This document shows positions 2,161 through 62,368 of a stretch of 64,000 bases of DNA, one piece after another. Where the stretch lies: positions 248,001 to 312,000 of the forward strand of contig CAWUHX010000039.1 in assembly GCA_963922205.1 (NCBI GenBank), read 5' to 3'. Both the position numbers and the translations under genes were made by a program. Each line of letters starts with the position of its first letter. The first letter of the stretch is position 1. Under the pieces are notes generated by a model. It saw nothing but the letters and a program-made list of their open reading frames with translations. It ran no database searches and had not been told where the DNA came from. Source of the DNA: Romanomermis culicivorax (taxonomy: Eukaryota > Nematoda > Enoplea > Mermithida > Mermithidae).

Positions 2161-3785
2161 ATGAAAATGAAGAAGGTTAAAGCTCCGAATGTGAAGCCGA
2201 TCACGGGAAATGAAGAAAATTCATCTAAAGTTGACCAAAATTTTGTCGAAGAAAAATGCAAGGAGGCTGAAACATCTGTGTCTGCTGAAGAACAGGAAAC
2301 ACATAGAAAAGGAAAAAAACGTTCCCTCAAATACGCAAAGGCTAGTGTACAGAATTCAGACGAAGAAGTTGATTCAGAAGGAAACGTTGCTAAAAGGAAA
2401 AAGCTGGGAAGTTATAACGAAAAAATGTCTGACGATGAACTGAAGAGAACAATTTTCATCGGAAATTTGCCCATAGGAATAACGAGAAAAGATGTTCAAA
2501 AATTATTCAGTCCTTGTGGCGCCATCGAGTCGAGTAGAATCAGATCCATAGTCCTGAGCAAAGATAAAATGTGGAAAAGAGTGGCAGCTATCAAAAATGA
2601 AATGTCCTCCGAATTTAAGGACAGTATTCACGCATACGTTAAATTCAAGGACGTGGCATCTGTAAGGTTTGTCAATTTTTGGGTCTATGGAAAATACGGG
2701 TTACTGTAGCTGAATAACCTGCAGATCGGACTAAATGCTAAAACGTTCTTAATTTATTCTTTCTTCTTTAGAATCGTCAACAGAAAGCGAAAACGTCAAG
2801 GGGCAAACGACAGCGACAACGATCAAGAAAAACGCCAAGGTAAGTTGAAAAGGGAAATCGTAGTCTCGCAACGAAATTATGTTTCTTTCCAGGTTCCAAA
2901 GGTCGCGAAAGCCGGACGGAAAAGACGACGTTTTACCAACGACCCTACGACAAAATTGGGAGCAGAGAAGAAAAGCAGGTAAGCTAGATTTATTAGAAAA
3001 TTGGTGAAGTAATTTTAACATACAAAACAAGCATATTTATATAAATAATAAGACATAAAAAATAACATAAAAACTAGGCATTGACGTCATAAAATAACAT
3101 AATATTATATCATAATCTAGGTAGGCGTAATCATAGAAAGAGTTGCATGACGTAGGGCGAAAATCTTGACGCAGTGTCTACAGTAGGATCGGATGACGTA
3201 GGTTTGCCTGGTGTGTGTGCGAATGGGGGAGAGTCGTTGTTTACTGTAGGTTTCTTAATTGTCGATTGGTTTGTAGCGCCCTCACACATCTGTGGAAAAG
3301 GCTCTCGAAATGAACGGAAACTTATTCAGTAATCGCCGTCTGCAAATAGACTCTTGCTCAAAGACATTAAAATACGATTCAAAACGGTCCGTCTTCGTCG
3401 AAAATATGCCATTCAAATGTACAGAAGACAATTTAATTACTCACTTTTCTGACTGTGGTGAAATCGAACGGGTCCGAATAGTTCGAGATAGTAAAACAGG
3501 CGCCGGCAAAGGATTTGGATTTATTGTTTTCAAAGATACCAGTGCAGCCGGATTGGCATTGAAGCTGAATGGCGAAAAATTCGAGGACAGACTTTAAGAG
3601 TGACAAGGGTGGTAAAAAACTTCGGCAAAAAGAAAACCCTGAAAATCAATGAAAATAAGAAGCGAAGAGAATCAACGAAATTGAACGACGACAAGAACCC
3701 AACAAAGGAGAATAAATCGAAAAAGAATCAAACCAAAAAACAAAAATTGCAGAAAAATAAGAAACCGCAAAGTTTTATGGAATGA
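2161..3785 (+). pseudogene. RBM34: RBM34/Nop12-like RNA-binding protein, split by a solo LTR and frameshifted
   Basis: Homologues are nucleolar two-RRM proteins linked to large-subunit ribosome biogenesis. The N-terminal ~95 residues are acidic/basic and low complexity. RRM1 begins at TIFIGNLPIG (about residue 97) and reads to KDVAS at 2661. RRM2 follows at 3388-3570, with RSVFVENMPF as RNP2 and KGFGFIVF as RNP1, then a Lys-rich tail typical of the family. Two breaks are visible. A 626-bp solo LTR (2661-3286, CATC duplication) sits inside the second helix region of RRM1; splicing 2661 to 3277 would keep the frame and add RPHTS. A one-base loss near 3594 creates a TAA at 3595-3597, and the tail continues in the next frame to TGA at 3783. 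Apart from the LTR the gene is intronless, with AATAAA at 3812 and a short A run at about 3828, so it may be a processed copy. Family identity is firm; functionality is uncertain. Confidence 0.8.
2661..3286 (-). mobile_element. Solo LTR of the Gypsy-class element, inserted in RBM34
   Basis: On the minus strand this reads TGTGAGGGCGC...CCTTACA and aligns over its length with the LTRs at 52308-52926 and 61744-62364, with many substitutions and small indels. It is flanked by CATC on both sides (2657-2660 and 3287-3290), the 4-bp duplication size typical of Ty3/Gypsy integrases. Removing the LTR and one CATC restores an uninterrupted RRM reading (VASVEKALE). A TGACGTCA box is kept at 3082-3089. 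The divergence from the other copies shows that this insertion is much older than the full-length element. Confidence 0.88.
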
Positions 3786-14049: not shown

Positions 14050-16800
14050 GAGCGCAGGTTACTATGTGTAACAGAACTGATGCGCCCCCCGAGATACCTT
14101 GGAAAATCTATTTTTGACATTATCGTTTTAAAGGCCTATAGATTGGAAGAACTAATAACATCATTTGAGATGTCGTTCCATATGTTGACATATCTGTTGG
14201 AGAAATCATAAAGCCTTGCATTTGTTTTGGCTTTACCAGAAATCAGTTTGTAGTCATTTTTACGGCGAGTAAAGTCAGAACTGCTGCTAATGAAAAAATC
14301 TGATGGTTTAAGGCAAGATTGGTTCTTAAAGATTTGGAACATGAGATTTTCGACGAACTTCTAGGCATTCTATACCCAGTTTTGATAAGCGCTGGTCGTA
14401 GGAAAGTTCACACAAAACCAAAAATTCATTTAGTAAACCTCCTCTGAACATTTTCAACTAAGTCAATACCAGAAGCATAATAGGGATTCCAAACAGTGGA
14501 ACAATACTCTAATATTGGTCTAACATAAACTGTAAAGGCACGGATGAGATTAGAGGCATTACGAGAAGTAAATGTTTTCATTATCAAATAGCTCTGTTGG
14601 TAAGCCTTTTTAATTATATGATTGAGGTGATCCCTGAAATTTAAATTTTGGGACATAAGTATACCAAGATCTCTAACGTATGGATTGTTGCCGGGAATAA
14701 CAGAATTACCCATTGTGTAATTGTATTTTGGATTTGAAGAACCCAAATATAGAACAGTACTTTTTTCAACAGAAATTTCTAATTGCCATTTTTTGGACCA
14801 ACCGAAAATTTGATCAAGATCATCTTGGAGGATACATTTGTTTCTGGAACAATTAAAGATCCTAACATCATCAGCAAAAAGATAGATATCAGATTTTAGA
14901 TTGTCAGGGAGATCATTGATGAATAACAAGAAAAGTGTAGGACCTAGAACACTACCCTGAGGAACACCACTAGAGACGGGAGCAAACTGAGAAGTGACAT
15001 TATTGATACAGACTCTCTGGGTCCGAGTTGAGAGGAAATCTAAGATCCACTTTTCAAGAAAGCCTGAGATATAATAGGTTTTCAATTTAAGCATCAACTT
15101 TTTCGTGAGAAACCGAATCAAAGGCTTTCTTGAAATCAATGTAAATTGTGTCAATTGGCAAGCCGGAATCAATGTGTTTGGTCCATACATTTTTACATTG
15201 AAGTAATTGTGTTTCACAAGATTTTGTTGGGAGGAAACCAAACTGGCATGGAGTTAAGAGAGAATTATTTCTCAGATAAAACATGATAGAGGAGTTATTG
15301 ATACTTTCCATAATCTTGCAAGGGACACTGCACAAAGAGATAGGCCGATAGTTGGAAGGAAGGGCAGGGTCGCCTTTTTTGAATACAGGAACAATGTTGG
15401 CCTTTTTCCACAATAAGGGGAGTGATCCAGTTCTGAAAGAAACTTAGAAAATATGTGAGAATGGTTCAGCCAAACAGGTAGAAAGTTTCTTCAGGAAATA
15501 GGCACACAAGCCATCGGGGCCTAGAGCTAGAGAGGGTTTTAATTTTCTGAGTGCTATACCAACCAAGTCTACTGTGAATGAAACCAACGAAATTTCGGAA
15601 GTTGTTCTGGGGAGGATATTAAGAATGTAGTCATCATCATGAGTAAAAACTGAACGAAAATATTCATTGAAAAGTGTACACTTCTGAAGATCATCAAGAA
15701 TGATAGTGTCCCTGTTACTTACTAAAGGGGGGATAGTTTTCTTTGATAGAATTTTAGAGTTGACAAATTTGAAAAATGATTTTGGGTCAGATTTTTTGAT
15801 TAAATTTTGCTCAATATCCACCTGATGAGAAAGCATCAGTGTTTTTACACACTTACAACGAATTTGGTACTTTGACTTGTCAGTAGGTAATTTAGTTTTT
15901 TTATACTTTTCCAAAGTCTTAGTTCTTTGGTGAGAGATTTCCGAATGTTGTTTGGATAACATGTTTTAAACTTTTTTGGTTTAAAAACAGGGACAAAGTT
16001 GTTTATAGCACGGTTTAAAATTTCCAAAAAAATCTTGTACATGTCTTCAGCATTGGCACATGTAGAAAATAAGTCCGGCCAAGATGTGTGGGATAATAAA
16101 TCTGAAATAGCCACATAATCAGCCTTAATAAAGTTTCGAGTTCTAGCATGGGGAAAGATAGGTAACTTTTGCAAGATTAAAGAGAAATTCACACTGGCGT
16201 GGTCACTGGTAGAAAAAGGGGGAGAAACAAAAACATTGGATATTGATTTATCACCAAAAACTAAATCAAGAACATGATTACTAAGAGTAGGTTGTGATGC
16301 AAGTTGCTGAAGGCCTGTACTGGAGAAAAACTCAAAAAAACATTGTGTAAATGGCTTCATTTGGGTATGTGGACAGGAGTTAAAATTGGGCAAATTGAAA
16401 TCACCGGTGATCGTAATGGGATAACTAGCTCTGGTTGTCCACTCTAAAAGAATGCATAATTTATTACATAGATCTAGGTTGTAATCGGGAGGTCTATAAA
16501 CTAAGACAAGGCGATGATAAAGGCCAGCAATAATGAGATCCAGAACTAAAGTCTCTGGGACATCGATATTTGGAGGTACCCTAGTGAGAGTTGCACATAG
16601 GCTTTTTTTTACAAAAATAGCAACACCACCACCTCTTTTATGGAGCCTGTCCTTTCGAAAGATGCTGTAGGAACCAGTGTTAGACAATAAACCATCAGAA
16701 ATATCACTGTGTAGCCAGTTTTCTGTGCAAAAAATGATGTCATGTTCATACGTGTTAAGGAATAAGTTAAATTCTTCCAATTTGCAGACCAGACTTCTGG
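14050..16800 (-). pseudogene. CR1-like LINE ORF2: endonuclease and reverse transcriptase, frameshifted
   Basis: Reading from 16780 downward, the N-terminus is an exonuclease-endonuclease-phosphatase domain: CTENWLHSDIS holds the catalytic Glu, then ITGDFNLPNFN and TSDHASVNF. A frameshift near 15900 leads to a linker and ALGPDGLCAYFLKK, another near 15430 to WKKANIVPVFKKGDPALPSN and IYIDFKKAFDSVSH, and another near 15100 to VSSGVPQGSVLGP and the catalytic LFADDVRIFN (about 14870). The C-terminal WNPYYASGIDLVENVQRRFTK follows, then after another break RLYDFSNRYVNIWNDIS (14136-14342). In the family the endonuclease nicks the target and the RT primes from the nick. At least four frame changes make it non-functional as assembled. 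Confidence 0.88.
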
Positions 16801-16849
16801 CATTAAATAAAATACACTTTAGACGACTACTATCTGGTGGGTTTTTTAC

Positions 16850-17862
16850 CTAAAATGTGTTAGGCCTGTTACGTGACCTGTGCATTTGCGTACTAATACA
16901 ATTTTTGTGAAAATCGATATATAAATTTGTCTCGCCAGAAGATCTGCGTTGGTTTAACTCCACAACTAATTCGCACTGGCATTGACGCTGCAAAAAAGAT
17001 AAATCAGGTCGTGAACGTAAATATTTATTGGCGGGAAAGTTTAGAGATTGTGGTTTTACAATTTTGTTAATCCTTTTTATAAATAAACGTTGAGTTTTAG
17101 AGGATAAACAACAAACTTTCAAGAAGCGTGGTTTATTAGGCAGTACAGGACCATCACGAAAAACCTTAACAATATCTTCAGGATTTAAACTTGAATCCTG
17201 ATTCTGACCATGATCATCGAGTAACTTTGCAATCAGTGACAATCTTCCGCACTTCATCTAAATCGTTTGCGTCAGTGACTGGGAGGCCAAATAAAACTGC
17301 ATTCGCCTTTTTTGATTCTCTTTCAATTGCATCGCGTACGACCATTTCAATATTTAAGCTGTTCAAATTTTGAGTAATAGATAGTTTGTTGCTAGCTTCG
17401 ATTTTTGAAACTCTGGATTCTAGAGCTTCAATTTTCGATACTCGGGATTCTAAATTAGAAATTTTTTGAGTTAAATTTCGAAAAGTTACGACACAATTAT
17501 GACAAATAAATGGCAAAAGAAAGTTCGATTTGGTGAATGAATCACTATTATATAATGCTGATAGTTCCTTCGGTAAATTTAGGCAATCGGAATAGGTCCA
17601 GTGGTAGCATAGATCACATTGAAGCGCATCAGAATGTTCGTCAGTGACCATATTACTACATTCGATACAGGGACAGTCTTCAGATAAAAGTGTCGGGGAA
17701 TTTAATAAAGGTGTCGGCGGATTATCGGTATTTCTAGGTGTAGTCGATATAGAAGGTAAATTTTTGCCATTTTTGGAATTGTTGCCATTGCCATTAGGTT
17801 TGTTACGTGTAAATGATGGCGCCTTAACATACATTCGAGCCCCGTTTGTTTTGTCTTGTTGA
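16850..17862 (-). pseudogene. CR1-like LINE ORF1 with PHD finger and coiled coil, frameshifted
   Basis: The frame at 17214-17834 carries a PHD-type zinc finger: CPCIECSNMVTDEHSDALQC, then CDLCYHWTYSDC and CHNC about 35 residues later. It is followed by a coiled coil (NLESRVSKIEALESRVSKIE, with a short internal duplication) and ESKKANAVLFGLP. After a frameshift near 17220-17255 the second half (16850-17257) reads RFLKVCCLSSKTQRLFIKRI and ends with NLYIDFHKNC. PHD-bearing ORF1 proteins are known from CR1-clade LINEs, where they act as RNA or nucleoprotein partners. The true start is probably ATG 17834. Confidence 0.82.
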
Positions 17863-47606: not shown

Positions 47607-50600
47607 CTATTGATTTGAAGTTATTCCATTTCTTAAAAATGAAGGTTTTGTTAGTCTTTTTAACACATTTTCCATTTCTTTGTTACATTTCATTGTGTTA
47701 GCTTCACTCATTGCAAAATTCAAAAAAGCTGTTAGACTGAGGTCTTCCTCTGCTCTTCTTTTCCTATAAATGAAAGTTTTTGCTAAAATGATTATAATAT
47801 TAATTATCTTATTATGTTCTTTTTTTACCTCTGGTTTATATCCAGATATTATTTGTTTATGACTAAACTTCATATTTTTATCACCGTTTTTATTTATTAT
47901 ATGTTCCAACTCTTTCCACAGAGATTTAACTTGTTGACATTCCAGAAATGTATGTGAAATATCATCGTCTCCATTACACTGAAAGCAACCACTGGATTCT
48001 TTAATTCTATATTTCACTAATAAATGTGGGGTGATTATGATATTATGTAGAATTTTATATTGTATTTCTTTGCTTTTGTTATTGATACCTAATTTGTATA
48101 GCATTTTCCATGATTTAGTGAAGTCCTCGTCATTTAATCCCAGTTTCGCTTTCCATTTTTTTTGTCCTGTAGGTATACATTCCTTCTGTTTTATCAGATA
48201 TTTTTTTAGATTTTTTATGTTTTTTATCAAAAATGACTGGTTCGAAATTAATCTCCCTTTTTAGCAGGTTAGATTCTTTAATTATAGCTTTCCAGGATCT
48301 AGGAATGGAATGGATTATTCTTGCATAGTCAAACCATTTTATGTTACATAGTTCCCCTTTTAAATCTTTCCAGCTTTTAAAAGTCCAGTCCTCCTTGAAC
48401 CAGTTGAGGAGATAATTGAATTTTGTTTCTTTGAGGTCGTCTAAATATATGGATGTTTTGTTACTTAAGATAAATCTATTATTGTTTATTCTTTGTGCAA
48501 TTACATCCATCGGAGTTGTAATATTATTAATATTAGTTGTAGGCATTAATGCTATTAACTGCAAAATCTCTCCATAGAAGGACTTTATGTGTAAACCTAG
48601 TGTTTTTAGGGAGAAATTATCGTTTAATAAATTTCCTAGTCCACCTATTTTATCTAGGGGTTGAAGGGCCAAGTGGTTCCATTTTCCAGGTTCCAACAAT
48701 CTTAATAGCCATTTCGCTTTCATCTGTTGTATCACAATTTCAATATCTGGGGCCTTTATTCCACCTTTATCATAATCTTGTATTAGGACACCATGTTTTA
48801 TTTTTGGTTTATGTCCATTCCACAGAAAATTCTTTAATAGGGTTTTTAGTTTAGTGATAGTTTTTTTGTCAACAGGCAAGTTTGTCAGACTGTACAAAAT
48901 TTTTGGAATAATTATGTAGTTCCATACTGCAATATTCCCATAGATGGTCAAGTGTCTTGATTGCCACAATTTACACTGTTCCTTGCATTTCTCAAACTTA
49001 TCTTGAAAGTTTTCCTTGTACATTTCTTCTTTATTATATGAGAATGTGATGCCTAGTATTTTCACACTCTTTACTATTTCACTGTCATTTAATTTACCTT
49101 TTTTTGTTTTATTTTTCCCTATTCCTAATACTTGTGTTTTATTTACATTGATTTTCAAACCAGAGTGGGATGTGAATTTTTGAATTAATTTTAGTGCTTC
49201 ACTATAATCTTCTTTGTTTCTTGCTAATATTGTAGTATCATCAGCATACATGCAAACTTTATGTACTTGATCATTTACTGAAAAAAAAGAGTCCTGAAAA
49301 TCTCAGGGAGTTTCTTAGCATATGCGCCATAATTTCCATGGCACAGATAAAAAGATAAGGCGATATTGGGCACCCTTGCCTGACACCACAACGTAGTTCA
49401 AAGCGTTTAGTTGTCAAACCAGCATTTATAACTACAGCTTGTGAATTTTCATACAAAGCTTTCATCCATGTTATATATTTTTTTCCAAAGTTAAAAGCTT
49501 CTAGTGTGTTGAACATAAACTGTCTATTTAAGGAGTCAAAAGCTTTTTCTATATCTAGTGATATTAGATATCCACTATCATCTCTGTCCTCATAGTATTC
49601 GATCAAGTCTAGCAAATACCTTATATTCTCACCAATATATCTACCTGGTACAAAGCCTTTCTGATCTTCATGTATAATGTGTTTTAAGTTCTTTTTTAAT
49701 CGTTCTGCTAAGGTTTTAGCCAATATTTTATAGTCCACATTCAGTAGTGATATAGGTCGCCAATTTGCCAAGTTCTCCAAATCTTTTTTTGGTTTAGGAA
49801 TTAAAGTTATCACACTTCTTCTTTGAGATCCAGTGAGTTGACCATTATGGAACAAAAATTCATGGCACTCTTTCAATTGGTTTGCTAAAATATCCCAATT
49901 TTTTTTATAAAACTCGACCGTGAGGCCATCATCTCCAGGTGACTTATTGCTTTTCATGCTGTTCAAAGCTTTCTTATATTCTTCCAAAGTTAGCTCTTTT
50001 TCCAGTTCACTTTTTTGTTCTTCTGATAGTTTTGGTAATGCCTTTATATCTTCATCATCTAGAAGGTTGGATAGATTTGATGGCAGATCTTTTCCCTTAT
50101 ATAGCTTGCTGAAATAGTTAAAAGTTTCTTTGAGTATATCCTCCGATCTATCCAGTTCAACGCCTTCATCAGATTTAAGTTTAACAATTGTTTTCTTGCT
50201 ATAATTTCTTTTCTCCATGTTCAGAAAATATTTGTTAGGTTTCTCTCCATACAAATGCCATCTTGTTTTTGCTCTTTCAATCATAAATTTTGCTTTTTCC
50301 TCCATCACTTTTTGGAGTTTCTCCTTGATCTGTAGATACTCATCATACTTATCAACTGAGTTTTCCGATGTGGTTTCAAATGTTTCGAGTTTCAATCTAA
50401 GTTCTGCCTCATGGTTTCTCCTCGATTTTGCTCTCTCTTTTGAGTACTTCATTGTGTTCCATCGTATTTTATACTTTAAGTATTCCCATGCTGCTGAAGG
50501 ATCTAAGTTTTGCTCTTTACACTCTATATTTGTTTCTTCTATAATTCTCATAATGATTGTGTTAAAGTTTTCGTCTTCAAGTAAGGAATTATTGAAATGC

Positions 50601-51382
50601 CAATATCCTGGTCCAGCTTTTTTGTATAGCTTACCAACGATATTTATAAAAATAGCACTATGATCTGACTGAAGTCCTGGAATTATATTACATGTAACAG
50701 TTTCATTGATTAATGCATCTGAAATTAGGAAATAATCTAGTCTACATTTAACCAGGTGCGGTTTAATTTGACTCCAGGTATATCTTTTTTGATTTGGGTT
50801 TTTCCATCTATAGGCATCTGATATTTGCAGGGAATTCATATGCTCTTTGAGTTTATGGACAGACGTCTTTTTGTTATATGAAATGTTACCTCCAAGTTTG
50901 TCTTTTTTGGTGTCCATCACTACATTCAGGTCTCCTCCAATTATTACGGGGGAATCTTCAATATTTATGTTTTTAAGACTCCTGTATATCTCATCCCAAA
51001 ATTTGATCTGTTCTTTTTCTCGTATGGGGGCGTAGACATTCACTAAAACAAAGAGAGTACCTTCAATTTTTAGTTTGAGCATCAGAAACCTTCCTTCATC
51101 ATCTTTGTTGATTTCAACTATTTGAAAATTGAATGTGTTATTGAGTAAAATTGCTACTCCCCTTGAATTTGTTTCACCATGTGAGAAAAAAAGATGTTTC
51201 TTCTGTAGGCCCGCCCCCCACTGGAGGCCTAGCCGTTTTTCTATATCCACTGAAAAATGTGTCTCTTGTAAAAAAATTATGTCTGTCTTATTTTCCTTAC
51301 AATAATTCAATATTGACCTTCTCTTCACCTCATTTTTTCCTCCTTTAATATTCAAAGATAGTATCCTCACATTATAAGCCAT
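47607..51382 (-). pseudogene. L1/Tx1-like LINE ORF2: AP endonuclease, RT, CCHC; two frameshifts
   Basis: Read from ATG 51382. The AP-endonuclease domain (about residues 1-240) shows LSLNIKGG, FLQETHFS (catalytic Glu), IIGGDLNVVMD, CRLDYFLIS and LQSDHSAIF. The phrase GPGYWHFNNSLL and a spacer follow, then the RT: LIPKPKKDLENLANWRPISL, FVPGRYIGENIRYLLDLI, ISLDIEKAFDSLN and GVRQGCPISPYLF. A frameshift in an A8 run (about 49277-49284) falls just before the catalytic MYADDTTILA (49251 on). A second, in an A8/T8 run at about 48157-48164, precedes the C-terminal part with the zinc knuckle CFQCNGDDDISHTFLEC. The reconstructed length, ~1,260 residues, is normal for L1/Tx1. Everything else is open, so a sequencing origin of the breaks is possible. 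Confidence 0.9.
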
Positions 51383-51711
51383 TCACAACAAATCCACTGT
51401 TGTAGTATCATTATCATATTACTGGTGTTCTGTTTATTTTCTTTCCTTGTTACAGGCTACAAGGTCTTTTTGTCTTTTTGCTTTTATATCGTAGTTTAAA
51501 GGTCCGCACTACTGTGGTCAAAATGTGCACTACTGCACTCAAAACTGCACTACTGCAGGCAATTAAGATGATGGTGCATCTATTTCAGCACCTTTTCATT
51601 TTGAAACTAGATGATTATAATTCATGCAGCTCTTTTAAATTAACAACAAAACGAACAAGAGTTAAAAAATCGAAAAAAATCAGTATGGTAGGGCAACAAC
51701 AAACGAAAAAA

Positions 51712-52227
51712 TCATGCAATACTTTCCTTTCCTTTTTCCTTCGATTTTCGTTTTTCTTTCTGGCTCGCCCTCTGCTGTTTGGTCAAATCTGGCGCAACAA
51801 TAATCGGCGGTTTCCGAGATTTGTTCCGTTCGACCAAGTTTTTTCCATTGGCTAAAATCGTTTCTTTGTCTTCTAATTGCATCAAATCGACTTTAATATT
51901 GATCCGATTTCCAGGGCTCTTTGACTCGTAATATCCGATCCATTGGATTTCGAGATTTTTCGCCCAATCTTCAGGTAAATTCAAAACTTCGTGGCAAAAT
52001 TGGTGAATTTTCTCATGCTTCTTTGCGTTGTTCATCTTCTGATCCATGGGGATCAGATCAAGCGGATAGTTAAAGATCCAGAATGCCTTGGATTTTGCTT
52101 GTCTTTTGAGTTGTTCAACCGTCCTCCCAAGTTCGTGGGTTTGTTCTTCTAATTTACTAATTTTCTTTCGATAATCCGTTTCTTCATCGCCATTTGAGTT
52201 CGCCCGTTTTCGTTTTGAATTGTTCAT
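51712..52227 (-). CDS. L1/Tx1-like LINE ORF1 protein
   Basis: A 171-residue basic protein. It begins MNNSKRKRANSNGDEETDYR, continues with a coiled coil (KKISKLEEQTHELGRTVEQL) and an L1 ORF1p-type RRM (AFWIFNYP..., ILPEDW-like LPEDWAKNLEIQWIGYY), and ends with a C-terminal segment RKPPIIVAPDLTKQQRASQK typical of L1 ORF1 C-terminal domains. In L1 elements this trimeric protein coats the element RNA and acts as a nucleic-acid chaperone. It lies upstream of ORF2 on the same strand, 329 bp apart, and has no internal break. Confidence 0.8.
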   Translation of the reverse strand: MNNSKRKRANSNGDEETDYRKKISKLEEQTHELGRTVEQLKRQAKSKAFWIFNYPLDLIPMDQKMNNAKKHEKIHQFCHEVLNLPEDWAKNLEIQWIGYYESKSPGNRINIKVDLMQLEDKETILANGKNLVERNKSRKPPIIVAPDLTKQQRASQKEKRKSKEKGKESIA

Positions 52228-52307
52228 TTCTTCGGAATTTTGCAGCTATAAATTATTCACAAATTGCTCGCCACACTGTTTCACTGGTAAATGGCCATAT
52301 ATAGTTG

Positions 52308-52926
52308 TGTGGGAGCGCGCTAAAAATCAATAATTAAGAAACCTACAGTAAACGGCGACGCTCTCACAATCACACACACGCCAGGCAAACCTACGTTATC
52401 CAATCTTGCTGCAGGCATCGTGTCAAGACTCTTTGATTACGCAATCTAACTTTTTTATTTTCGTACGACTACGCTTATTAAGATTATGATCTAAGATTCT
52501 ATGAAACTATGACGTCAATGCTTAGTTTTTATGTCTTTTTTTATGTCTTTTTATTTATATAAATATGTTGGTTTTGTATGTTAAAATCACTTCAACATTT
52601 TATCAATAAATTCGGCTTGACTGCTTTCTCTGCTCTTTACCATCGTCGTAGGGTCGCTGGATAAATCGTCGATTGTTCCGTCCGGCTTTTGCGATTGTTG
52701 GAACCTGGAAGAAATACATTTTCGTTTCGAGACTAAGATTTTCCTTTTAATTACCTTGGCGTTTTCCCAAATCGTCGCCGTTGCCGCCCATCCTTTGACG
52801 TTTTCGCTGACGATTCTGAAGAAGAAAGAATAAATCAAGAACGTTTTAGTATTCAGTCCGATCTGCAGGTTATTCAGCTACAGTAACCTGTATTTTCCAT
52901 TGACCCAAAAATTGACAAACCTTACA
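52308..52926 (+). repeat. 5' LTR, 619 bp
   Basis: Begins TGTGGGAGCGCGC and ends CCTTACA (TG...CA). It carries a perfect CRE-like TGACGTCA at 52510-52517, a TATA-like TTATATAAATA at 52555-52565 and an AATAAA at 52605-52610, a plausible U3/R arrangement. The minus strand holds an 83-residue frame (52587-52838) with intron-like borders discussed in the findings. Confidence 0.93.
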
Positions 52927-52928
52927 AG

Positions 52929-52946
52929 TGGCGATTCGTGGCAGGA
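52929..52946 (+). other. Primer-binding site candidate
   Basis: TGGCGATTCGTGGCAGGA starts two bases after the 5' LTR. TGG is the complement of a tRNA CCA end, and the position is right. The pattern recalls the tRNA-Arg type PBS of some Gypsy elements, but I cannot verify the tRNA. Confidence 0.55.
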
Positions 52947-53141
52947 CATCGGCTTCAATCTTTGGATTCGAATTGATCTTGGAGAAGCCTGAAGATAAAG
53001 AAGAAATAAAGAAGTACGAAGGTTGATGATTTTGGCAACTTACTCAACGTTTTTGAACTCGACGTTGACGTTTATTTTTCGGACTTGGCAATTTTTTCTT
53101 GAACGTCTGAAGAAGAAGATTTAGAAGAAGATTTACGAATT

Positions 53142-54635
53142 TTGTCAAATCAAGAAGATCACGTTTTGGTTGAAAATAGAGAAGCAATGGCACGACAAGA
53201 AAATCGTTTTCGGTTTAAGAATAATGCGAGAGATTCTCAGATTCAATCGAACGGTCCCCAAGAGCCCAACAGGATGGGAGGTCGCCCATATTGCGCAATA
53301 AATACCAACTTTAACTGTGGCCGCTCATCAGGAAGGTCCTCAGATGGTGTCGTTTCTTGTTTTAAATGTGGTAGAAGTGGGCATTATTCTTCTACTTGCC
53401 CTATGCTCGAACGAAATCAACATTCCAGATTTTCGAGTTCCCTGCGTAGCACGTGGCGTGAGGGACCGCCCCGAGTGTCAATGCCAGCCCGAGGCGTTTC
53501 AAACCCTAGGAGTCCAGGAGATGCCCTTTCTGGAACCCGAGGAGTCAATAGTCAGCTTTTTATTGCCGAGGCTAATGGGCCCAACGTGTCAGAATTTAAT
53601 CCTGACACCATCGCAGAACAGTCCGATCCCTGGAACTGCGATGATTTCGATCTGTATGGAAATTCCAATGTGAGGCCTCAGGCACATGTTTTTATGGCCC
53701 GATATGATGAATTTTATTTTGGAACCGGACACTCCACATTGGTGAGTAGTGGGACAGGATCTGAAGAAATTAGCGATAACCCCACTATTGCCTCCCATGG
53801 GTATACTGGCAATTATTATGAAGTCCCAGAACATTTAGAAAATGGTTATTTAGAAATTGATTTTGATGAAACTTCTGATTCCGACTATGATGAAGACAGA
53901 CGGCGCCATCAGCAATTTGGAAATTCTGGGCAAGTCGAATCAGTTAATGTTTTCATGAATACGGCTCAGACTGGAGGTCATAATTCCCACCGTCCCTCTG
54001 GAAGCGGCCCCATGGGTGAAGTTTATTTTATTTTTGATGGGCCTGCTGCAGCCAGTATTTGTAATTTATTTGATATTTTGAATTTTATGCATATGCACGA
54101 ATTTGTAAGCCAGTCACGACGAGGAGTGATCGCTAGACAAGGACCCCTGGAATTTACGACAGAAGGATGGATCAATAAGTCGATACCATGGATCGTTCGG
54201 AGGCCCGAAGTCACCTCCCCAGAAGATCCCATGCGACATCAGTCAGCTCAAACTGACTCAAGAACGGATCCAGGAAGGCCAGAAGATTTACAATTTCAAT
54301 TTAGAGCAGAAGCAGTTCAAAGAAGCAGAAAATGTGCCAGAAGAAGAGTTCCTCAACACCATTTCCAACGAATTCTTAGAAATTTCGTCTCACTTACCTC
54401 TTCTTATTTTTTGTTCGCCGCCGTGTTGTTACTTTTCTTTGTTGTCGGCTATTCCTTCGGCGAACCTTTCTACCAATGTGGCGCTTCACGAGGCGGTCGT
54501 GCCTTGATGGTCCCGAAAACGATGCAATGCCGCCCTCCGCCACTGATCAAAGCTGAAAAACACGAAATAAAGTTGCATATTTGGTCCACGAATGGACATT
54601 TGAATCAAATTATAGCCGTTCGCTGCGTTTTATGA
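53142..54635 (+). pseudogene. gag: gag remnant (zinc knuckle) running into the glycoprotein leader
   Basis: A 497-residue open frame. The first ~70 residues are polar, followed by one CCHC zinc knuckle, CFKCGRSGHYSSTC (about residues 72-85), the nucleocapsid hallmark that binds genomic RNA. No capsid-like helical domain precedes it: only ~215 bp separate the LTR and the ATG, so MA/CA is missing or has moved. A ~300-residue acidic, low-complexity middle follows. Near residues 416-439 comes a strongly hydrophobic stretch (SSYFLFAAVLLLFFVVGYSF) after an arginine-rich segment, which looks like the signal peptide of the glycoprotein; a Cys-containing mature N-terminus follows. ATG 54231 could start that protein separately. 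The frame closes at TGA 54633, in what is probably still the glycoprotein. Confidence 0.75.
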
Positions 54636-54722
54636 AACCGAACCGTTTGTACGAACACAGGAGTTTTTGGATCACGAGGAGTTGTATCCGATACCACTTT
54701 GTAGAACATTGTCACTCCAGGT

Positions 54723-57700
54723 TTGTGCAGACAAGTCTGGTCTGATAAAAGCTATATGGGACGCAATTTAGCAGAAATTCAACCTGGAATTTGGACCACA
54801 AATCAGACGTTGCAAGTAGAATTCAAGTGGTGCTGCAAAGATACTTGTCGATCAGTCCAGAATTTACTCATGGAAGTTGGGACAATAGCAGCTGTTGATC
54901 ACAAAGTAACTATTAGTGATCTTGGAGACACTGGTGGTTGCCCTCCCGTTGCTGGACAATGTTTGAACGCTGGAGGAACGATCATTTGGAATGCCACCAC
55001 CTTCGAAAATTATTGTCCATTGGCTCTAGTAGGAAATTTCACAGGACACATCCTACAAGATCATGTGATAGTGGAAGAAGTTCAAGGAGCTTTTCAGCTC
55101 TCTGCGACAATTTCTACGTGTCATTTACAAAACGCTTATTCCACTGAGCAAGGACCTATTCTGCAGTTCGAAGAAGATGTTCATCAACTTTTGGCCGAAC
55201 GAGAAACATCAAATATCAATCCTGGATCACTCGAAAAAGATCCTATGAATTCGAAATTTCAGTTTTTATACGACAAAATGATCGAGCAAGAAAGTCGAAT
55301 TTTCCAAACTATTTGGACCGAATTATGCCATTCTTCAAAACAACATTTAGTGATGATTTGGCAACTTTTGAAACTCGATCCGACTCTAGGAGCCAGAGCT
55401 TTACTTATGCGAAATGATATTATCGCCTCCTTTGCCGGTCAAGCTCTCATGGTTTGGGAATGCGAAAGAATCGTACCAGATCATATATTTTGGGACTACC
55501 AAGTTAATCAAACCTGCTACGCCTATTTGCCAATTTCATTCCAAAATCACACACTTTTTGTGGTTCCCGGAATGAAGGATGTGATTGGAACATCGCCTGT
55601 CGTAGATTGCAATCACCATGTGGTTGGTATCTATCACGAAACAGGAACTGGATGGAGAACATCTACTGGCCCAGTACACGTTGCAACGATCCCTTACGGT
55701 ATCCAGTGGCAAGGCAGAACTAAATTGCAAACTTTCAACACGCCTTCCTATTTTCGTGATCAACAAGCTGGCGTTTTACACACTTTTGGCCTTATGAGAA
55801 GCTATTTTTCCAAAATTTCGATCATTGAGAGCGCTTTGAACCGACTCACACGATATACAGCAGAACTATCATTGGATCCGACTGTGGTGTATCAGACTTT
55901 GGCTGGTACAGGGAAGATGGTAGCAGAAATTACGGAAGGAGCTGCCAACTCGTTGGAACATATCAGCACTACAGGCATGAAGAATTTGGTCACTACTACG
56001 GATTATTTGATTTCTGGCCCCCTACAACTCATCTTTAATATGCTCATTGTCCTAGTAGTCCTAATCGTTTTACTCTTGATAGGATATTTCGTTTTTCGTT
56101 ATTATCTCAAAGCAAGAATTGGGAAATGTTTTGGTCGCCGCCGAAAAGATGATCATGAACCAATTGTTCGATTTTCCGATTTGCAAGAAACGGAAAGAGG
56201 AAATGAAGAACAAATGCGAAACGAACATGCAGACCCCACAGCATCTGAAGTAGCTTATTCTACCATGTTGAAGAAAGCTTTTTCACCTTGGCTAAGTCGC
56301 AAAACTTCATTAAAAGACGAATCTTCGACCTCGAACTGCAGTATAAGACTCAGCACCCAACCAACTCAAGATCGATGCCCCACCATTGATGTATGGTTGA
56401 ACGAAGACGTAGAAGAACCCATAACTACATTAGTCGACAGTGGTTCAGATATCTCCCTTATTGGTTACAACTTAGCGATAAAAAGAGGATTTCAAATACT
56501 CCCTCCGATGATCAAAAATTACAAGGTTTTTAATAGTCAAACTGCAGAAGTTACGGCTTCTTGTTGGGTTAGAATCTCGCTTACAGTGGAGCAAAATTTG
56601 TCGTCACCGCCCGAGTTTCTTGGAGTACATGTAGTCAAGAATTCCACCTATGATTTACTATTGGGAACTGATTTCTTACGACGATTCGCAAAAACTGAGC
56701 TACATTGGAAAGCCGCCCGTATCGATTTTGGTTCAATCACCGTACCCATGAAGAATCCGAAAATTTTCCTACCCGACACCACCCGAGGAATAGTGGTCCT
56801 GGCCGAGACAGTAGTCATTCCACCCCGAACTATTAATTTTGTGGATGCCCAGCTAGAAATGCCTTATACCCGATTGAATTCGTTGATTTTTGAACCGTTG
56901 TCGAAATTTGTACTCCGTTTTCACCTACAAGTCGCCTCTAGTTTAGTCAAACCCGACAATGGACTTATTCCAGTCAGCATTCTCAATACTACGGAAAGCC
57001 CTATCACCCTTTATCAAGGAATCAAAATTGGAAAAGTTCGAGCCTATCAGAATTTGTATTCTGATCAACCAACATCCTGCCATCAAAAAGTTTGTTCATC
57101 TCAAGATTTTTGCGAAAAGAATGAAGAAGAAAAAGCCGAGATTTTGCTAGCAAATCCTGAACTTCAGAGTGATATAAAAGAAGCTCACCTGACCGATCTC
57201 CAACGTCGCCAATTTTTCGGTCTCCTGGCCCGCTTTTCGACCTTGTTCGCCACCGACACCGATCTTGGACGAACCACTTTGGTCGAACATCGAATCAAAA
57301 CCGGCGACAACATCCCCGTCCGACAAATTCCATATCGAGCACCTTATAAACAAAAAGAACAAATAAACGAGGAAGTTCAGAAAATGTTGGACAAAGGAGT
57401 TATCACTCCATCTCAAAGTCCATGGGCCAGCCCAGTTGTCTTAGTGCCTAAGAAGACAGGAGGATTTCGTTTTTGTATCGATTATAGGAAACTGAATGCC
57501 GTTACCAAAAAGGATAGTTATCCATTACCTAGAATTGGTGATATTTTTGATGCTGTTCAAGGAGCTACTCTATTCTCCACTTTAGATCAAGCTTGGGGCT
57601 ATTGGCAGATACCAGTTGCTCAAAAGGATAAAGAGAAAACAGCCTTTATTACCTATAATGGCCTTTACCAATTTGACGTTGTCCCTTTTGGTCTTTGCAA

Positions 57701-58004
57701 CGCTCCTGCGACTTTTCAACGATTAATGGACCTCGTTTTGAGCGGGCTCCAGTGGTCGACTTGTCTTGTTTATCTCGACGACGTTTTGATCTTCGGCCGA
57801 ACGTTCGACGAACACCAATCGCGGCTGGACGAAGTCTTTCAACGTTTGCAGGCCGCCGGTTTAAAACTTCGCCTGGAAAAATGTCACTTTCTAAAATCGA
57901 AAATTGCTTACTTAGGACATGAAATCTCAGCGCAAGGAATAAAACCAGATGAAAACAAAGTTAGCAGCGTGAAGAACTTTACACCACCAACGAATATTGA
58001 TTAA
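54723..58004 (+). pseudogene. Membrane glycoprotein fused in frame to protease and reverse transcriptase
   Basis: A 1,093-residue frame. Residues 1-435 look like a viral class surface glycoprotein ectodomain: many Cys, at least five N-glycosylation sequons (NQT, NAT, NFT, NQT, NHT), then a transmembrane segment (LIFNMLIVLVVLIVLLLIGY, 436-459) and a basic cytoplasmic tail. It does not look like the baculovirus-F-type envelope of errantiviruses; the Cys/Trp pattern suggests glycoproteins of chuvirus-like negative-strand RNA viruses, which I cannot confirm. The same frame continues into a retropepsin (LVDSGSDISLIG, catalytic Asp at residue 572; DLLLGTDFLRRF) and RT (VITPSQSPWASPVVLVPKK; catalytic YLDDVLIFG at about 1017). 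Between 54635 and about 54770 the glycoprotein frame is disturbed (stops at 54633 and 54705; the open frame shifts for ~130 bp). TAA at 58002 interrupts pol. Confidence 0.82.
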
Positions 58005-58016
58005 CTACGCAGCTTT

Positions 58017-59498
58017 TTGGGCTTAGCAAGCTACTATAGACGTTTTATACAAGATTTCGCGAAAATTGCCTATCCCTTACATTTTCTACTGAAGAAAGCT
58101 CAGAAATATGAATGGACGAACGCCTGCCAACAAGCTTTTGACACATTGAAAGAAAAATTAACGACTGCGCCACTTTTGATTCATCCGAATTTTCATGCAC
58201 CTTTTATCCTATATACAGACGCTTCTAATGAAGGATTAGGCGCCGTTCTATCTCAAAAAACAGAAGAAGGAGAGAAACCTATCGCTTATGCCAGCAGAAG
58301 GTTAACGAAAGCAGAGAAAAACTACGCAATTACGGAACAGGAAGCTTTAGCCGTAGTTTGGGCAGTAAAATATTTTCGCCACTATTTGTATCAGCAGCGC
58401 GTCACTGTTTTTACGGATCATTCAGCCTTGCAAAGCGTTTTTTCAAAACCAAACCCTTCCGGTCGTATAGCTAGATGGGGACTAGCATTACAAGAATTTC
58501 AAGAACTTAACATCAAACATCGCGCCGGAAAAGTCAACAAAAATGCAGACGCTCTTTCAAGAAACCCAGTACGTGAAGAAAACGACAAGAAAGGCGTAAA
58601 ATTTCACATAAACGCGATTACACGCTCACAAACTTGTAAAAACAAGCCAAAAGACTCAACCTCCATTATAGCAGAAGCAGGTTCCGAAAAAACATCGACT
58701 ATAGCAAGAACTAGTCTGGATGAAACTCAAACTACACGCTCAAAAACGCCTGATAACTTCTTTCCAATTCAGGAAGACGCGAATTTTGAAGAACTTCCAA
58801 CTATAGGAAGAACTACTTTCGAGAAAACGCGAACTATAGTCACGGGAAAGGAAGAGAACGAGTTCAACGTGAGTAATATGAACGACTTTCATAAAGCACA
58901 AAGAAGTGATCAATTTTGTAGTCAACTAATAGCTTATTTACAGTCTGACTACCTGCCTGAAGATCTTAAGCAAGCCAAGAAAATTGTTTCACTAGCATCC
59001 CAATTTACGATAAAAGACGAAATTCTATATTATTTGGGTGATGCAGACGAAAACGAACTAAAATTAGAAGTTCCAGTTTCGAAGAAAGAAGAAATTTTAG
59101 AAGCTTGCCATGATGACGTTTTTTCTGGACATTTTGGTTTTACAAAAACATTGGCAAAAATTCGCCTACGTTACCATTGGCCTACAGTATACCGCGACGT
59201 ACGAGAACATTGCTTAAATTGTATCAGTTGCAGTATGAGAAAAACATCTACAAAAAGAAATCGCGCCGCTCTTATGCCTATACCAGTCACAGGTCCATTT
59301 GACAGAGTGGCTATGGACATTTTAGGTCCTTTGCCTATAAGCGAAAATGGAAATAAATACGTCATTGTATTCAGCGAATATTTAACGAAATATGTGACGG
59401 CAGTAGCTCTACCAGAAACTACGACAAAAAGTTGCTCAAGCTTTTATGACAGAAATAGTGCTACGTTTTGGCGCACCACTAACGTTACTTTCAGATAG
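58017..59498 (+). pseudogene. pol: pol: RNase H and N-terminal half of integrase
   Basis: In the same frame as the preceding ORF; only TAA 58002-58004 separates them, in the otherwise conserved junction before RSFLGLASYYRRFI. RNase H follows: FILYTDASNEGLGAVLSQK, EQEALAVVWAVKYFRHYLY, VFTDHSALQ, and NKNADALSR at the end. After a Ser/Thr-rich linker with a repeated TIARTSxxxTQT-like phrase comes the integrase zinc domain (HDDVFSGHFGFTKTLAKIRL..., CLNCISC, an H-x-H plus CxxC pattern), then the first catalytic Asp in AMDILGPLP. The frame is lost at the A5 run near 59430, so the last ~20 residues are out of frame. Confidence 0.9.
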
Positions 59499-60252
59499 AG
59501 GAGCAAATTTCTTATCTGATCTAATGTTACGCATTTGTGAAATATGTGCAACGAGAAAAATAAACATGAGTCCCTACCACCCACAAACAGACGGACTAGT
59601 GGAGAGATTCAATAAAACGTTGGCTACAATTATCTCGATGTACATCAATAAAAAACACAACGATTGGGATTCTTATCTGCCCTACGCATGTTTTGCATAT
59701 AACACGGCCACACAAAAGTCAACAAAGTACTCACCGTTTTTTCTTCTTTTTGGCCACCATCCAAATTTGCCGATTGACGCCGCTCTTCATTTTTCGCTGG
59801 CTTTTTATCGAATCGATGTTGATGATTACGGCGACAACATCCAACGTCTTTTGTCTGATGCCTGGCAATCCGCCAAAAAAAACATAAAAATTGCACAGAA
59901 TGCTCAGAAAAGTGCATACGATAAAAAAGAACATGGAGAAGAATTCGCAATAGGAGAAGAAGTTTTTAAATATAGTCCAGTGGTGAAGCCCAAACACTCA
60001 CCTAAATTTACTTTTCCATGGACAGGACCCTACGTCATCATTGAAAAGAAACATCCGACATATTTACTGCAATTGAAAGAAAATCCGAGCCGCCCGTATG
60101 AAAAAATACATTTCAATATGTTGAAGAAGAAAAAAAACAGACGACCATTTGTCCATGATTCAGACTTCAATTGTATCATCAGACCAGTCTCCAGAATTCT
60201 TATCTACGTGTTTGTCCATGTGAAGAAAGAAAAAAGAGGAAAAAATAGATAA
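59446..60252 (+). pseudogene. pol: pol: integrase core continuation and C-terminal domain
   Basis: This is +1 relative to the previous frame, picking up integrase in register. LLSDRGANFLSDL gives the second catalytic Asp and GLVERFNKT the catalytic Glu, completing D,D-35-E. YLPYACFAYNTATQKSTKYS and PFFLLFG follow, as in Gypsy integrases. The C-terminal domain reads FTFPWTGPYVIIEK and YLLQLKENPSRPYEKIHF, a GPY/F-like module. The ORF ends in a Lys-rich tail. No envelope ORF follows integrase, unlike the usual errantivirus layout. Confidence 0.9.
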
Positions 60253-61743
60253 ATACTTGTATATAACATATATTATTTATTGAGAAGGCTCATTTTTATT
60301 CTTTTATTCACTTGTGTACTCCACCGCCTAAATGTTTTTATATTCTTTCATCAAAGCATTTTCCTATATATTCTTTTTTGGTAAATTGTTATTTGTGTAC
60401 TCATTTATACTCTGCTATTAACTAATTTTTACACCTGAAGAATCCAAGGTTATACTTAGAATTTAAGCGAAATTGCGCCTCCCGTATCTCACGAATCTCT
60501 GCGACATATAGAAGAATTGATCACCGGTCAAAAACATTCAAAAACTTCTCGATTAGGCGATGCTTTGCAACAACCACCCCATTTGTTGCCGAAGAGAATC
60601 GAAAATTCGTCCAAATAACAACCGGAACGCCGAATATTTTCAAACCAAAACCGCCACCATCAAGGAGCAATGCCTCAGGAGGTAATGTCCCAATGATTCC
60701 TCCTCACACCCGTGTAACGACGAATGAACATTATTTGATCAATCCAATGCCTGAATCTTTCTTGCAATCAGTTATACCCTCGTCGACGCAAAATACACGA
60801 TTGAACGTTTCCAGTTTAATGATGGCTATTGTCAAATGTTCCCGATCCGATTAATAATAGCTTAATCAAAGTCGCACCGACTCCCGCAGTTGCCCTACGA
60901 TTGCCTCCCAAGTTCCCTCAACATCATCTGTGGATAAAATCAACCTCGAGGGGCCCAAAATCACTTCATCAAATTTCAACCTACAATTTATCCCCGGGAG
61001 CCATTTACGGAATCGATAGCCGCTTTCATTGTCTGCCATATGCCGCCTTATCATACCGAAATGATGCCCGCCGTTAAAAAAAAAAAAAAAAAAAAAAGTT
61101 GCCGAACATCGACGCATTTACTTATGAATCCCATTGTGACGCGATCCCCGGTTGTTACCCGAACAAATTGATGCCCTAATGGCCAAATTCTATAATATAC
61201 TTACGAGAGCCGCATCGTTCGTCATTCTCGTCTCCAAATTGTCGTCTCAAAATCATTGTCGCCGTCAATTAATTCGCCGTCGTCACTTTGTTCTAAATTT
61301 TTGTCGCCCCGTCATCAAATCGTCGCCAATTTTGTCGTATCCGTCGTCCTTTTCGTTGAATTTTCGTCGATTTTTGTCCATTTTACATCGTATATATATG
61401 AAAAAGAAAGCAACTGAAAACACCGTCTTAAATTTTGGTTGTTCATAAATTCGTAAAATTTAAATCTATGTAAAATGGGAAAGTTATAAAACAGAACAGG
61501 AAAAATCATAAAGAAAAACCCGAACGTAAAATTGGAGAAAATGGAAGACAAAAAAAGAAGCGAAGAAAATTATAACGAGAAAATCTGAGGATTGGAAGAA
61601 AAGAACGAAGAACAAATTTTATCATCATAAAACACTTACCCGAACAATCTGCCCTCGATTTAGCCGCCGATTCCCCCGCCGATTCGCCGTCCAAATCTTG
61701 CCCAACGAGGCTGGGGGCAGCCTTTTCATCAGCGCCGGAAGAA
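60253..61743 (+). other. 3' region of the LTR element, coding-like remnant and low complexity
   Basis: Between about 60480 and 61075 two overlapping frames are Pro-rich and look once-coding (VPDPINNSLIKVAPTPAVAL, then LRLPPKFPQHHLW), with stops between them; I do not recognise the product. An A22 run lies at 61076-61097. From 61200 to 61400 the sequence is TCGTC/GTCGC-rich. A purine-rich tract at 61490-61615 precedes the 3' LTR; the purines directly abutting the LTR (ggaagaa) are few for a polypurine tract. Confidence 0.5.
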
Positions 61744-62364
61744 TGTGGGAGCGCGCTAAAAATCAATAATTAAGAAACCTACAGTAAACGGCGACGCTCT
61801 CACAATCACACACACGCCAGGCAAACCTACGTTATCCAATCTTGCTGCAGGCATCGTGTCAAGACTCTTTGATTACGCAATCTAACTTTTTTATTTTCAT
61901 ACGACTACGCTTATTAAGATTATGATCTAAGATTCTATGAAACTATGACGTCAATGCTTAGTTTTTATGTCTTTTTTTTTATGTCTTTTTATTTATATAA
62001 ATATGTTGGTTTTGTATGTTAAAATCACTTCAACATTTTATCAATAAATTCGGCTTGACTGCTTTCTCTGCTCTTTACCATCGTTGTAGGGTCGCTGGAT
62101 AAATCGTCGATTGTTCCGTCCGGCTTTTGCGATTGTTGGAACCTGGAAGAAATATATTTTCGTTTCGAGACTAAGATTTTCCTTTTAATTACCTTGGCGT
62201 TTTCCCAAATCGTCGCCGTTGCCGCCCATCCTTTGACGTTTTCGCTGACGATTCTGAAGAAGAAAGAATAAATCAAGAACGTTTTAGTATTCAGTCCGAT
62301 CTGCAGGTTATTCAGCTACAGTAACCTGTATTTTCCATTGACCCAAAAATTGACAAACCTTACA
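61744..62364 (+). repeat. 3' LTR, 621 bp
   Basis: Nearly identical to 52308-52926; visible changes are gta/ata in the TTTTCxTACG phrase, a longer T run, cgtcg/cgttg, and ataca/atata. TGACGTCA is at 61946-61953. Confidence 0.93.
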
Positions 62365-62368
62365 GTTG

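What the first reader, a model, noticed from the sequence alone, without database searches (positions are those of the whole stretch)
53142..60252. Retroelement with the glycoprotein gene between gag and pol, in one frame with the protease
The sequence shows a CCHC zinc knuckle, then a hydrophobic leader, a Cys-rich sequon-bearing ectodomain, one transmembrane segment (about 56029-56097) and a cytoplasmic tail, directly followed in the same open frame by a retropepsin (Asp at 56436), RT, RNase H and integrase. Known Ty3/Gypsy errantiviruses and vertebrate retroviruses place env after integrase. Here nothing env-like follows integrase. If original, this would be a gag-env-pol element whose polymerase precursor is membrane-anchored or released by its own protease on the cytosolic side. 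The glycoprotein does not look like the errantiviral envelope type, suggesting capture from another virus group.
Basis: partly seen in the sequence, partly recalled or inferred. Interest (0 to 1): 0.92.

Follow-up and report, generated by a model that had tools for sequence, protein, structure and literature searches.

The report
Gag-env-pol retroelement family in a worm
A young, many-copied virus-like jumping gene in what is probably a mermithid worm carries its likely cell-entry protein in the middle of one long protein, between the capsid and the copying enzymes, an order for which no earlier description was found.

Summary
The window copy belongs to a high-copy Ty3-like LTR element whose glycoprotein lies between gag and pol in the same frame. 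The copy itself is broken and lacks capsid, but the order is no local accident: 66 of 83 glycoprotein matches in this genome have a capsid match upstream on the same strand, 61 of them at 1.47-1.92 kb. Six copies of four families read capsid to integrase as one open frame of 2,571-2,703 aa. Three distant capsid loci predicted the glycoprotein's place and all three carry it. Two unnamed outside proteins of about 2,300 aa have the same order. The glycoprotein matches the Monjiviricetes fusion family (PF24664, 1.4e-17), has a leader and one transmembrane segment, and shows dN/dS as low as gag (0.06 v 0.08; linker 0.60). Since pol follows it in frame, Env should be cut from a longer precursor. My model (inferred) is a membrane-threaded polyprotein, flavivirus-like, trimmed by signal peptidase and the element's protease. 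ICTV's profile puts metavirus env after integrase; ten literature searches gave no such order.

The parts
52304..52307 (.). target site duplication, GTTG (5' copy)
52308..52926 (+). 5' LTR, TG...CA
52929..52947 (+). primer-binding-site-like stretch beginning TGG; the tRNA was not identified
   Evidence: sequence
53103..54632 (+). gag remnant (no capsid), linker, and the start of the glycoprotein; one open frame
53358..53399 (+). CCHC zinc knuckle
   Evidence: PF00098
53400..54392 (+). poorly conserved linker (dN/dS 0.60 between families A and B)
54393..54449 (+). hydrophobic leader / internal signal sequence of the glycoprotein
54450..54632 (+). N-terminal part of the glycoprotein ectodomain
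54633..54704 (+). stretch bounded by in-frame stops in this copy; several other copies are open here
54705..56039 (+). ectodomain of the Monjiviricetes-type glycoprotein (PF24664)
   Evidence: E=1.4e-17
56040..56096 (+). single transmembrane segment
56097..56414 (+). cytoplasmic tail and linker to the protease
56415..56684 (+). retropepsin, catalytic Asp codon at 56436
   Evidence: (below Pfam's cut-off)
57444..57926 (+). reverse transcriptase (YLDD at 57771)
   Evidence: RVT_1 1.9e-35; Ty3 RT 9.7e-61
58113..58499 (+). RNase H
   Evidence: PF17919/PF17917
59070..60249 (+). integrase: H2C2 zinc domain 59070-59246, core, GPY motif at 60025; frame changes within it in this copy
61734..61743 (+). 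purine-rich stretch before the 3' LTR (polypurine-tract-like)
   Evidence: sequence
61744..62364 (+). 3' LTR
62365..62368 (.). target site duplication, GTTG (3' copy)

Best explanation
This is a broken copy of a young, high-copy Ty3/Gypsy-type retroelement, probably a retrovirus-like element of mermithid nematodes, whose ancestor took up a Monjiviricetes/gB-type (class III) fusion glycoprotein between nucleocapsid and protease, in one frame. Shown: the order, the single frame in six copies of four families, its recurrence in distant families and two outside proteins, and selection on Env. Inferred: genomic RNA is translated into one Gag-Env-Pol chain. Gag stays in the cytosol; the leader inserts the chain into the ER and is cut by signal peptidase; the ectodomain is lumenal; the TM anchors it; protease-RT-RNase H-integrase lie on the cytosolic face, like the capsid-signal-glycoprotein-TM-enzymes layout of a flavivirus polyprotein (recalled). 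The element's protease then frees Gag and Pol from Env during assembly, so that the Env anchor may also bring Pol to the particle. The window copy belongs to a capsid-less subfamily that was presumably moved in trans.
For: Capsid upstream on the same strand in 66 of 83 env rows, 1.47-2.37 kb, 61 of the 66 at 1.47-1.92 kb. Six stop-free capsid-to-integrase frames, 2,571-2,703 aa. Env found at 3 of 3 blind-predicted places, and at a fourth read before, in the capsid match's frame each time. Two outside proteins with the order CA-CCHC-env-PR-RT-RNH-IN. Romanomermis gene models with CA then env, and env then RT start. Leader and TM are the only segments reaching hydropathy 1.6 in the gag-env part of the seven sequences checked. 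16 cysteines invariant in five families. dN/dS between families A and B: env 0.062, gag 0.076, linker 0.595; among 13 of 30 copies env 0.118. RT and env trees share their supported splits. LTR pairs 98.2-100% identical in ten copies. No in-frame Met at a shared place before the leader.
Against: No transcript, proteome or particle evidence; no protease cleavage site is shown. The AlphaFold model was useless (mean pLDDT 41), so the class III fold rests on profiles. 17 of 83 env rows have no listed capsid within 6 kb upstream: seven share one deletion, ten were not examined. One of three further capsid loci sampled showed no env in the 1 kb read. Synonymous sites between A and B are near saturation in env (pS 0.72), so dN/dS is rough. 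Env-less or gag-pol-env sisters could not be searched for. A spliced env-pol RNA is not excluded.
Confidence: 0.66

Rival explanations
1. Same gag-env-pol element, but Env is made from a spliced RNA whose start codon comes from an upstream exon (as in insect errantiviruses), yielding Env-Pol or, with a second splice, Env alone; the Gag-Env-Pol chain is minor.
For: Insect errantiviral env can start in an upstream exon or within gag (PMC12992720, passage). Acceptor-like stretches lie upstream of the leader in all eight loci looked at.
Against: Those stretches lie at different places in each family; no GT[AG]AG donor in the first 400 nt after the LTR in 3 of 4 families; nearest in-frame Met is 11 to 109 aa upstream, not conserved. 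Pol still follows Env in frame.
Confidence: 0.22
2. The glycoprotein is a decayed passenger or a Gag extension without fusion function.
For: The window copy is broken; 7 of the 30 best-matching copies have a stop inside the env piece.
Against: dN/dS 0.06-0.12, 16 invariant cysteines, leader and TM kept in seven sequences.
Confidence: 0.06
3. Window-only accident: insertion of a viral glycoprotein, recombinant copy, or assembly error.
For: The window copy has stops and a deletion.
Against: 83 listed env rows (a few are two pieces of one copy) on many contigs, near-constant spacing to capsid, eight representatives, two outside proteins.
Confidence: 0.01

Closest known systems
Errantivirus / insect endogenous retroviruses (gypsy)
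   Same: Ty3-type pol, LTRs, an acquired viral Env
   Different: Env there is baculovirus F type and a third ORF after pol (passages); here PF24664 type, between gag and pol, in frame
Anakin (BEL/Pao with chuvirus glycoprotein, mosquitoes; PMC7642597)
   Same: LTR element with a glycoprotein of the Jingchuvirales/Monjiviricetes kind
   Different: BEL/Pao pol there, Ty3-type RT here. The position of the glycoprotein in Anakin was not stated in the abstract and section I read
Jingchuvirales glycoprotein EVEs near Gypsy fragments (PMC10084718)
   Same: Glycoprotein kind; Gypsy neighbourhood
   Different: Its authors found no clear evidence of capture by Gypsy elements (passage)
Atlas virus of hookworm (passage of PMC10309623; abstract start in the listing)
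   Same: Nematode retrovirus-like element with a captured Env
   Different: Phlebovirus-like class II Env
Bdelloid Juno/Vesta elements (PMC5408684)
   Same: LTR elements with a DEDDy exonuclease ORF after pol, like families B-D here
   Different: No env between gag and pol in the passages read
Flavivirus polyprotein (recalled, no call)
   Same: Capsid, internal signal, lumenal glycoprotein, TM, cytosolic enzymes in one chain
   Different: A likeness of layout only; no relation in sequence was tested

Membership tests
Metaviridae (Ty3/Gypsy) | RT closest to Ty3 among solved structures | tested here: met
   Ty3 9.7e-61; next an 'Enzymatic polyprotein' 3.2e-35 (caulimovirus, recalled) and foamy-type (recalled) 2.7e-27
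Metaviridae (Ty3/Gypsy) | PR-RT-RNase H-IN order with a GPY/F motif | tested here: met
Metaviridae (Ty3/Gypsy) | LTR TG..CA, 4-6 bp target duplication (values from the abstract of PMC12440569) | tested here: met
   TG..CA and 4 bp in the window copy
Metaviridae (Ty3/Gypsy) | Env, where present, downstream of integrase (ICTV profile) | tested here: not met
Metaviridae (Ty3/Gypsy) | place in an RT tree with reference clades | not tested
   no reference RT set was at hand; the RT tree holds only this lineage
Errantivirus | baculovirus F-type Env | tested here: not met
   no F-type family listed at E up to 1 for the 54705 piece; PF24664 instead
Anakin / BEL-Pao | BEL/Pao pol | tested here: not met
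   (RT closest to Ty3; no BEL/Pao RT is known to me to be in the PDB)
Troyka | CG..CG termini, 3-bp duplication, no envelope | tested here: not met
Retroviridae | gag-pol-env order (recalled) | tested here: not met
Class III fusion glycoproteins | profile similarity to Monjiviricetes fusion / gB | tested here: met
   PF24664 above cut-off in A, B, E; gB below Pfam's cut-off; PDB gB chains 0.0019-0.014
Class III fusion glycoproteins | fold | tested here: inconclusive
   mean pLDDT 41
Class III fusion glycoproteins | membrane fusion | not testable with these tools
   needs bench work

The most novel reading that the evidence does not exclude
A distinct, old lineage of nematode retroviruses that does not use gag-pol-env: Gag, Env and Pol are one ER-threaded chain, so that the Env anchor replaces the Gag-Pol fusion as the means of packaging Pol.
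Probability: 0.45. Interest if true: 0.92.

Novelty: new variant of a known kind. Interest (0 to 1): 0.85.

Why it matters
LTR retroviruses and errantiviruses are described with env last, after pol. A lineage with env in the middle of one chain would show that the order is not a necessity, poses the question of how the amounts of Gag, Env and Pol are set, and offers many young copies in which to study it.

Tried and rejected
Window-only insertion or assembly error: rejected by copy number and spacing. Errantiviral Env: no such family hit. Troyka and BEL/Pao membership: termini and RT do not fit. Internal start codon for Env: no shared Met. Structure: AlphaFold on the window env piece with five found proteins gave mean pLDDT 41 and was not used. 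IMG/VR: two scans, no relatives. The first dN/dS script had the minus-strand loci unturned and was replaced, whose tail failed and was completed; the A-B pol comparison was saturated at synonymous sites. Searches failed on a wrong frame. Literature: ten searches, of which one search was on the exonuclease; the library lacks most subscription journals and bioRxiv at large, so a report may exist elsewhere.

Full report
What is there. The window holds an LTR element at 52308-62364. The LTRs (52308-52926, 61744-62364) are 99.2% identical, begin TG and end CA, and are flanked by GTTG on both sides. Between them, on the plus strand, lie a CCHC knuckle, a variable linker, a leader (54393-54449), a Cys-rich ectodomain, a transmembrane segment (56040-56096), a tail, then retropepsin, RT, RNase H and integrase. 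This copy is broken: in-frame stops at 54633, 54702 and 58002 and a frame change within integrase.

The glycoprotein. The 54705 ORF matches Pfam PF24664 (Monjiviricetes fusion glycoprotein) at 1.4e-17; matches to herpesvirus gB (8e-6) and bornavirus G (0.02) are below Pfam's cut-offs, though bornavirus G passes in family E. A profile of five families finds three gB chains in the PDB, weakly (0.0019-0.014), and one unrelated chain at 0.79. A profile built without families A and B matches only the two env pieces among 279 window ORFs and 200 shuffles. Sixteen cysteines are invariant in five families. The structure model failed, so 'class III' rests on sequence profiles.

Is the order original? 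Searching the genome (359 Mb, 595 contigs) with the env piece gave 83 rows, a lower bound, some of them two pieces of one copy. Searching with the capsid of another copy gave 153 matches and more unlisted. Of the 83 env rows, 66 have a capsid match upstream on the same strand within 6 kb, at 1.47-2.37 kb, 61 of them at 1.47-1.92 kb (86 of the listed capsid rows were used). Of the 17 without, seven share one capsid deletion: the window, the copy and the five (6 of 6 compared align with the window through the junction). The other ten were not examined; in at least two a capsid match lies 16-18 kb upstream on the same strand. Six copies have no stop in either search and frames of 2,571 to 2,703 aa, in four families; one of these has a shorter pol. 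I single out none.

Depth. Five capsid rows at 28-29% identity lay in frames of 1,270-2,548 aa. I read the place where env should lie in four of them. All four carry env, in the capsid match's reading frame by coordinates; three of these were blind predictions after the first. I did not read pol in these four. Env core identity to family A is 75, 58, 59, 42, 41, 43 and 43% for representatives B to H; calling them families is my grouping. Outside this genome, a search confined to the env part found two proteins of 2,327 and 2,293 aa from unnamed sources; pieces align in the order CA, CCHC, env, PR, RT, RNase H, IN, env 39% and 35% identical, RT 50% and 52%. The only named relatives are Romanomermis culicivorax gene models: one has CA at residues 118-179 and env at 184-350, another env to 244 and an RT-start match at 210-292. 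Hence my inference that the host is a mermithid nematode (lineage), not tested otherwise. Two IMG/VR scans found nothing. In trees of six rows, RT and env share the supported splits A+B and A-D against the two outside proteins; C and D are unresolved in both.

Selection and age. Between families A and B, dN/dS is 0.076 for gag, 0.595 for the linker and 0.062 for env (pol was saturated). Synonymous differences are near saturation in env (pS 0.72), so these are rough. Among 13 of 30 copies without stops in either piece, env gives 0.118 and the PR/RT start 0.082. LTR pairs are 98.2-100% identical in ten copies, four of them 100%. So the elements moved recently, and env was kept by selection while they did.

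How it may work. In the gag-env part of seven sequences only two segments reach a hydropathy of 1.6 over 19 residues, the leader and the TM; two marginal ones (1.65, 1.62) lie in the enzyme part of two sequences (for E the part before the knuckle, and pol, were not at hand). The 30 residues before the leader hold 5-9 basic and 0-4 acidic residues, which fits a cytosolic N-terminus by the positive-inside rule (recalled). No in-frame Met is conserved before the leader, and no donor-like site is found early in three of four families. Because pol follows env in frame without a stop in the open copies, any RNA that makes Env also makes Pol unless pol is spliced out or the RNA ends early. The simplest reading is a single chain threaded through the ER membrane and cut by signal peptidase and by its own protease. 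That part is inference.

The window copy as a passenger. It lacks capsid, as do six others with the same junction, one of them with identical LTRs. This subfamily was presumably packaged by capsid of complete relatives (inference).

An extra gene after pol. [quoted passage not shown] That of D matches a 3'-5' exonuclease family just under its cut-off, and a profile of three finds mut-7 and WRN-type exonucleases (5.8e-6, 1.4e-5). Five family A copies and the window show no significant match there (best 0.11). Bdelloid Juno and Vesta elements have such an ORF (PMC5408684, passages).

Compared with print. ICTV's Metaviridae profile says Env is encoded downstream of integrase (PMC7879559, passages). 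Anakin is a BEL/Pao element with a chuvirus glycoprotein (PMC7642597, abstract and one section). A survey found no clear evidence of such capture by Gypsy (PMC10084718, abstract, Results, passages). Troyka has no envelope (PMC12440569, abstract, one section, passages). Cer1 has its extra ORF after pol (PMC10309623, passages). Insect errantiviral Env is F type (PMC12992720, passages); MDG1-group elements use a small fusogen instead of Env (PMC11952523, abstract). A search for 'gag-env-pol' with 'retrotransposon' gave no paper.

Open. Env-less or gag-pol-env sisters were not tested: the genome search with RT did not complete. Of three further capsid loci without a listed env, two carry a decayed env at the expected place and one shows none in the 1 kb read, so absence from the env list is not absence of env.

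Noticed in passing
window 52927-53420; L034, L052-L056: Capsid-less subfamily: the window and six other copies share one deletion junction; one has identical LTRs, so it moved recently, presumably in trans.
   Followed up: partly
L046:4023-5837, L047:1781-3781 (-), L049:3975-5333: DEDD 3'-5' exonuclease-like ORF between pol and 3' LTR in families B, C, D; by eye family C seems to have lost catalytic acidic residues (motifs recalled).
   Followed up: partly
G000 C32:1182062, C99:869182, C52:515882: Diverged exonuclease-like ORFs (34-44% identity) at places with no listed env match; perhaps further families.
   Followed up: no
G000 C143:233525-251601: Capsid and env matches 16 kb apart on one strand, possibly a nested insertion.
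   Followed up: no
window 47610-52242 (-): Non-LTR element with endonuclease, RT, zf-RVT and an ORF1-like frame without Pfam match, ending just before the 5' LTR.
   Followed up: no
window 14429-17834 (-): Fragments of a second endonuclease/RT element, with a PHD-finger-like frame below Pfam's cut-off.
   Followed up: no
window 2161-2709 (+): ORF with an RRM match.
   Followed up: no
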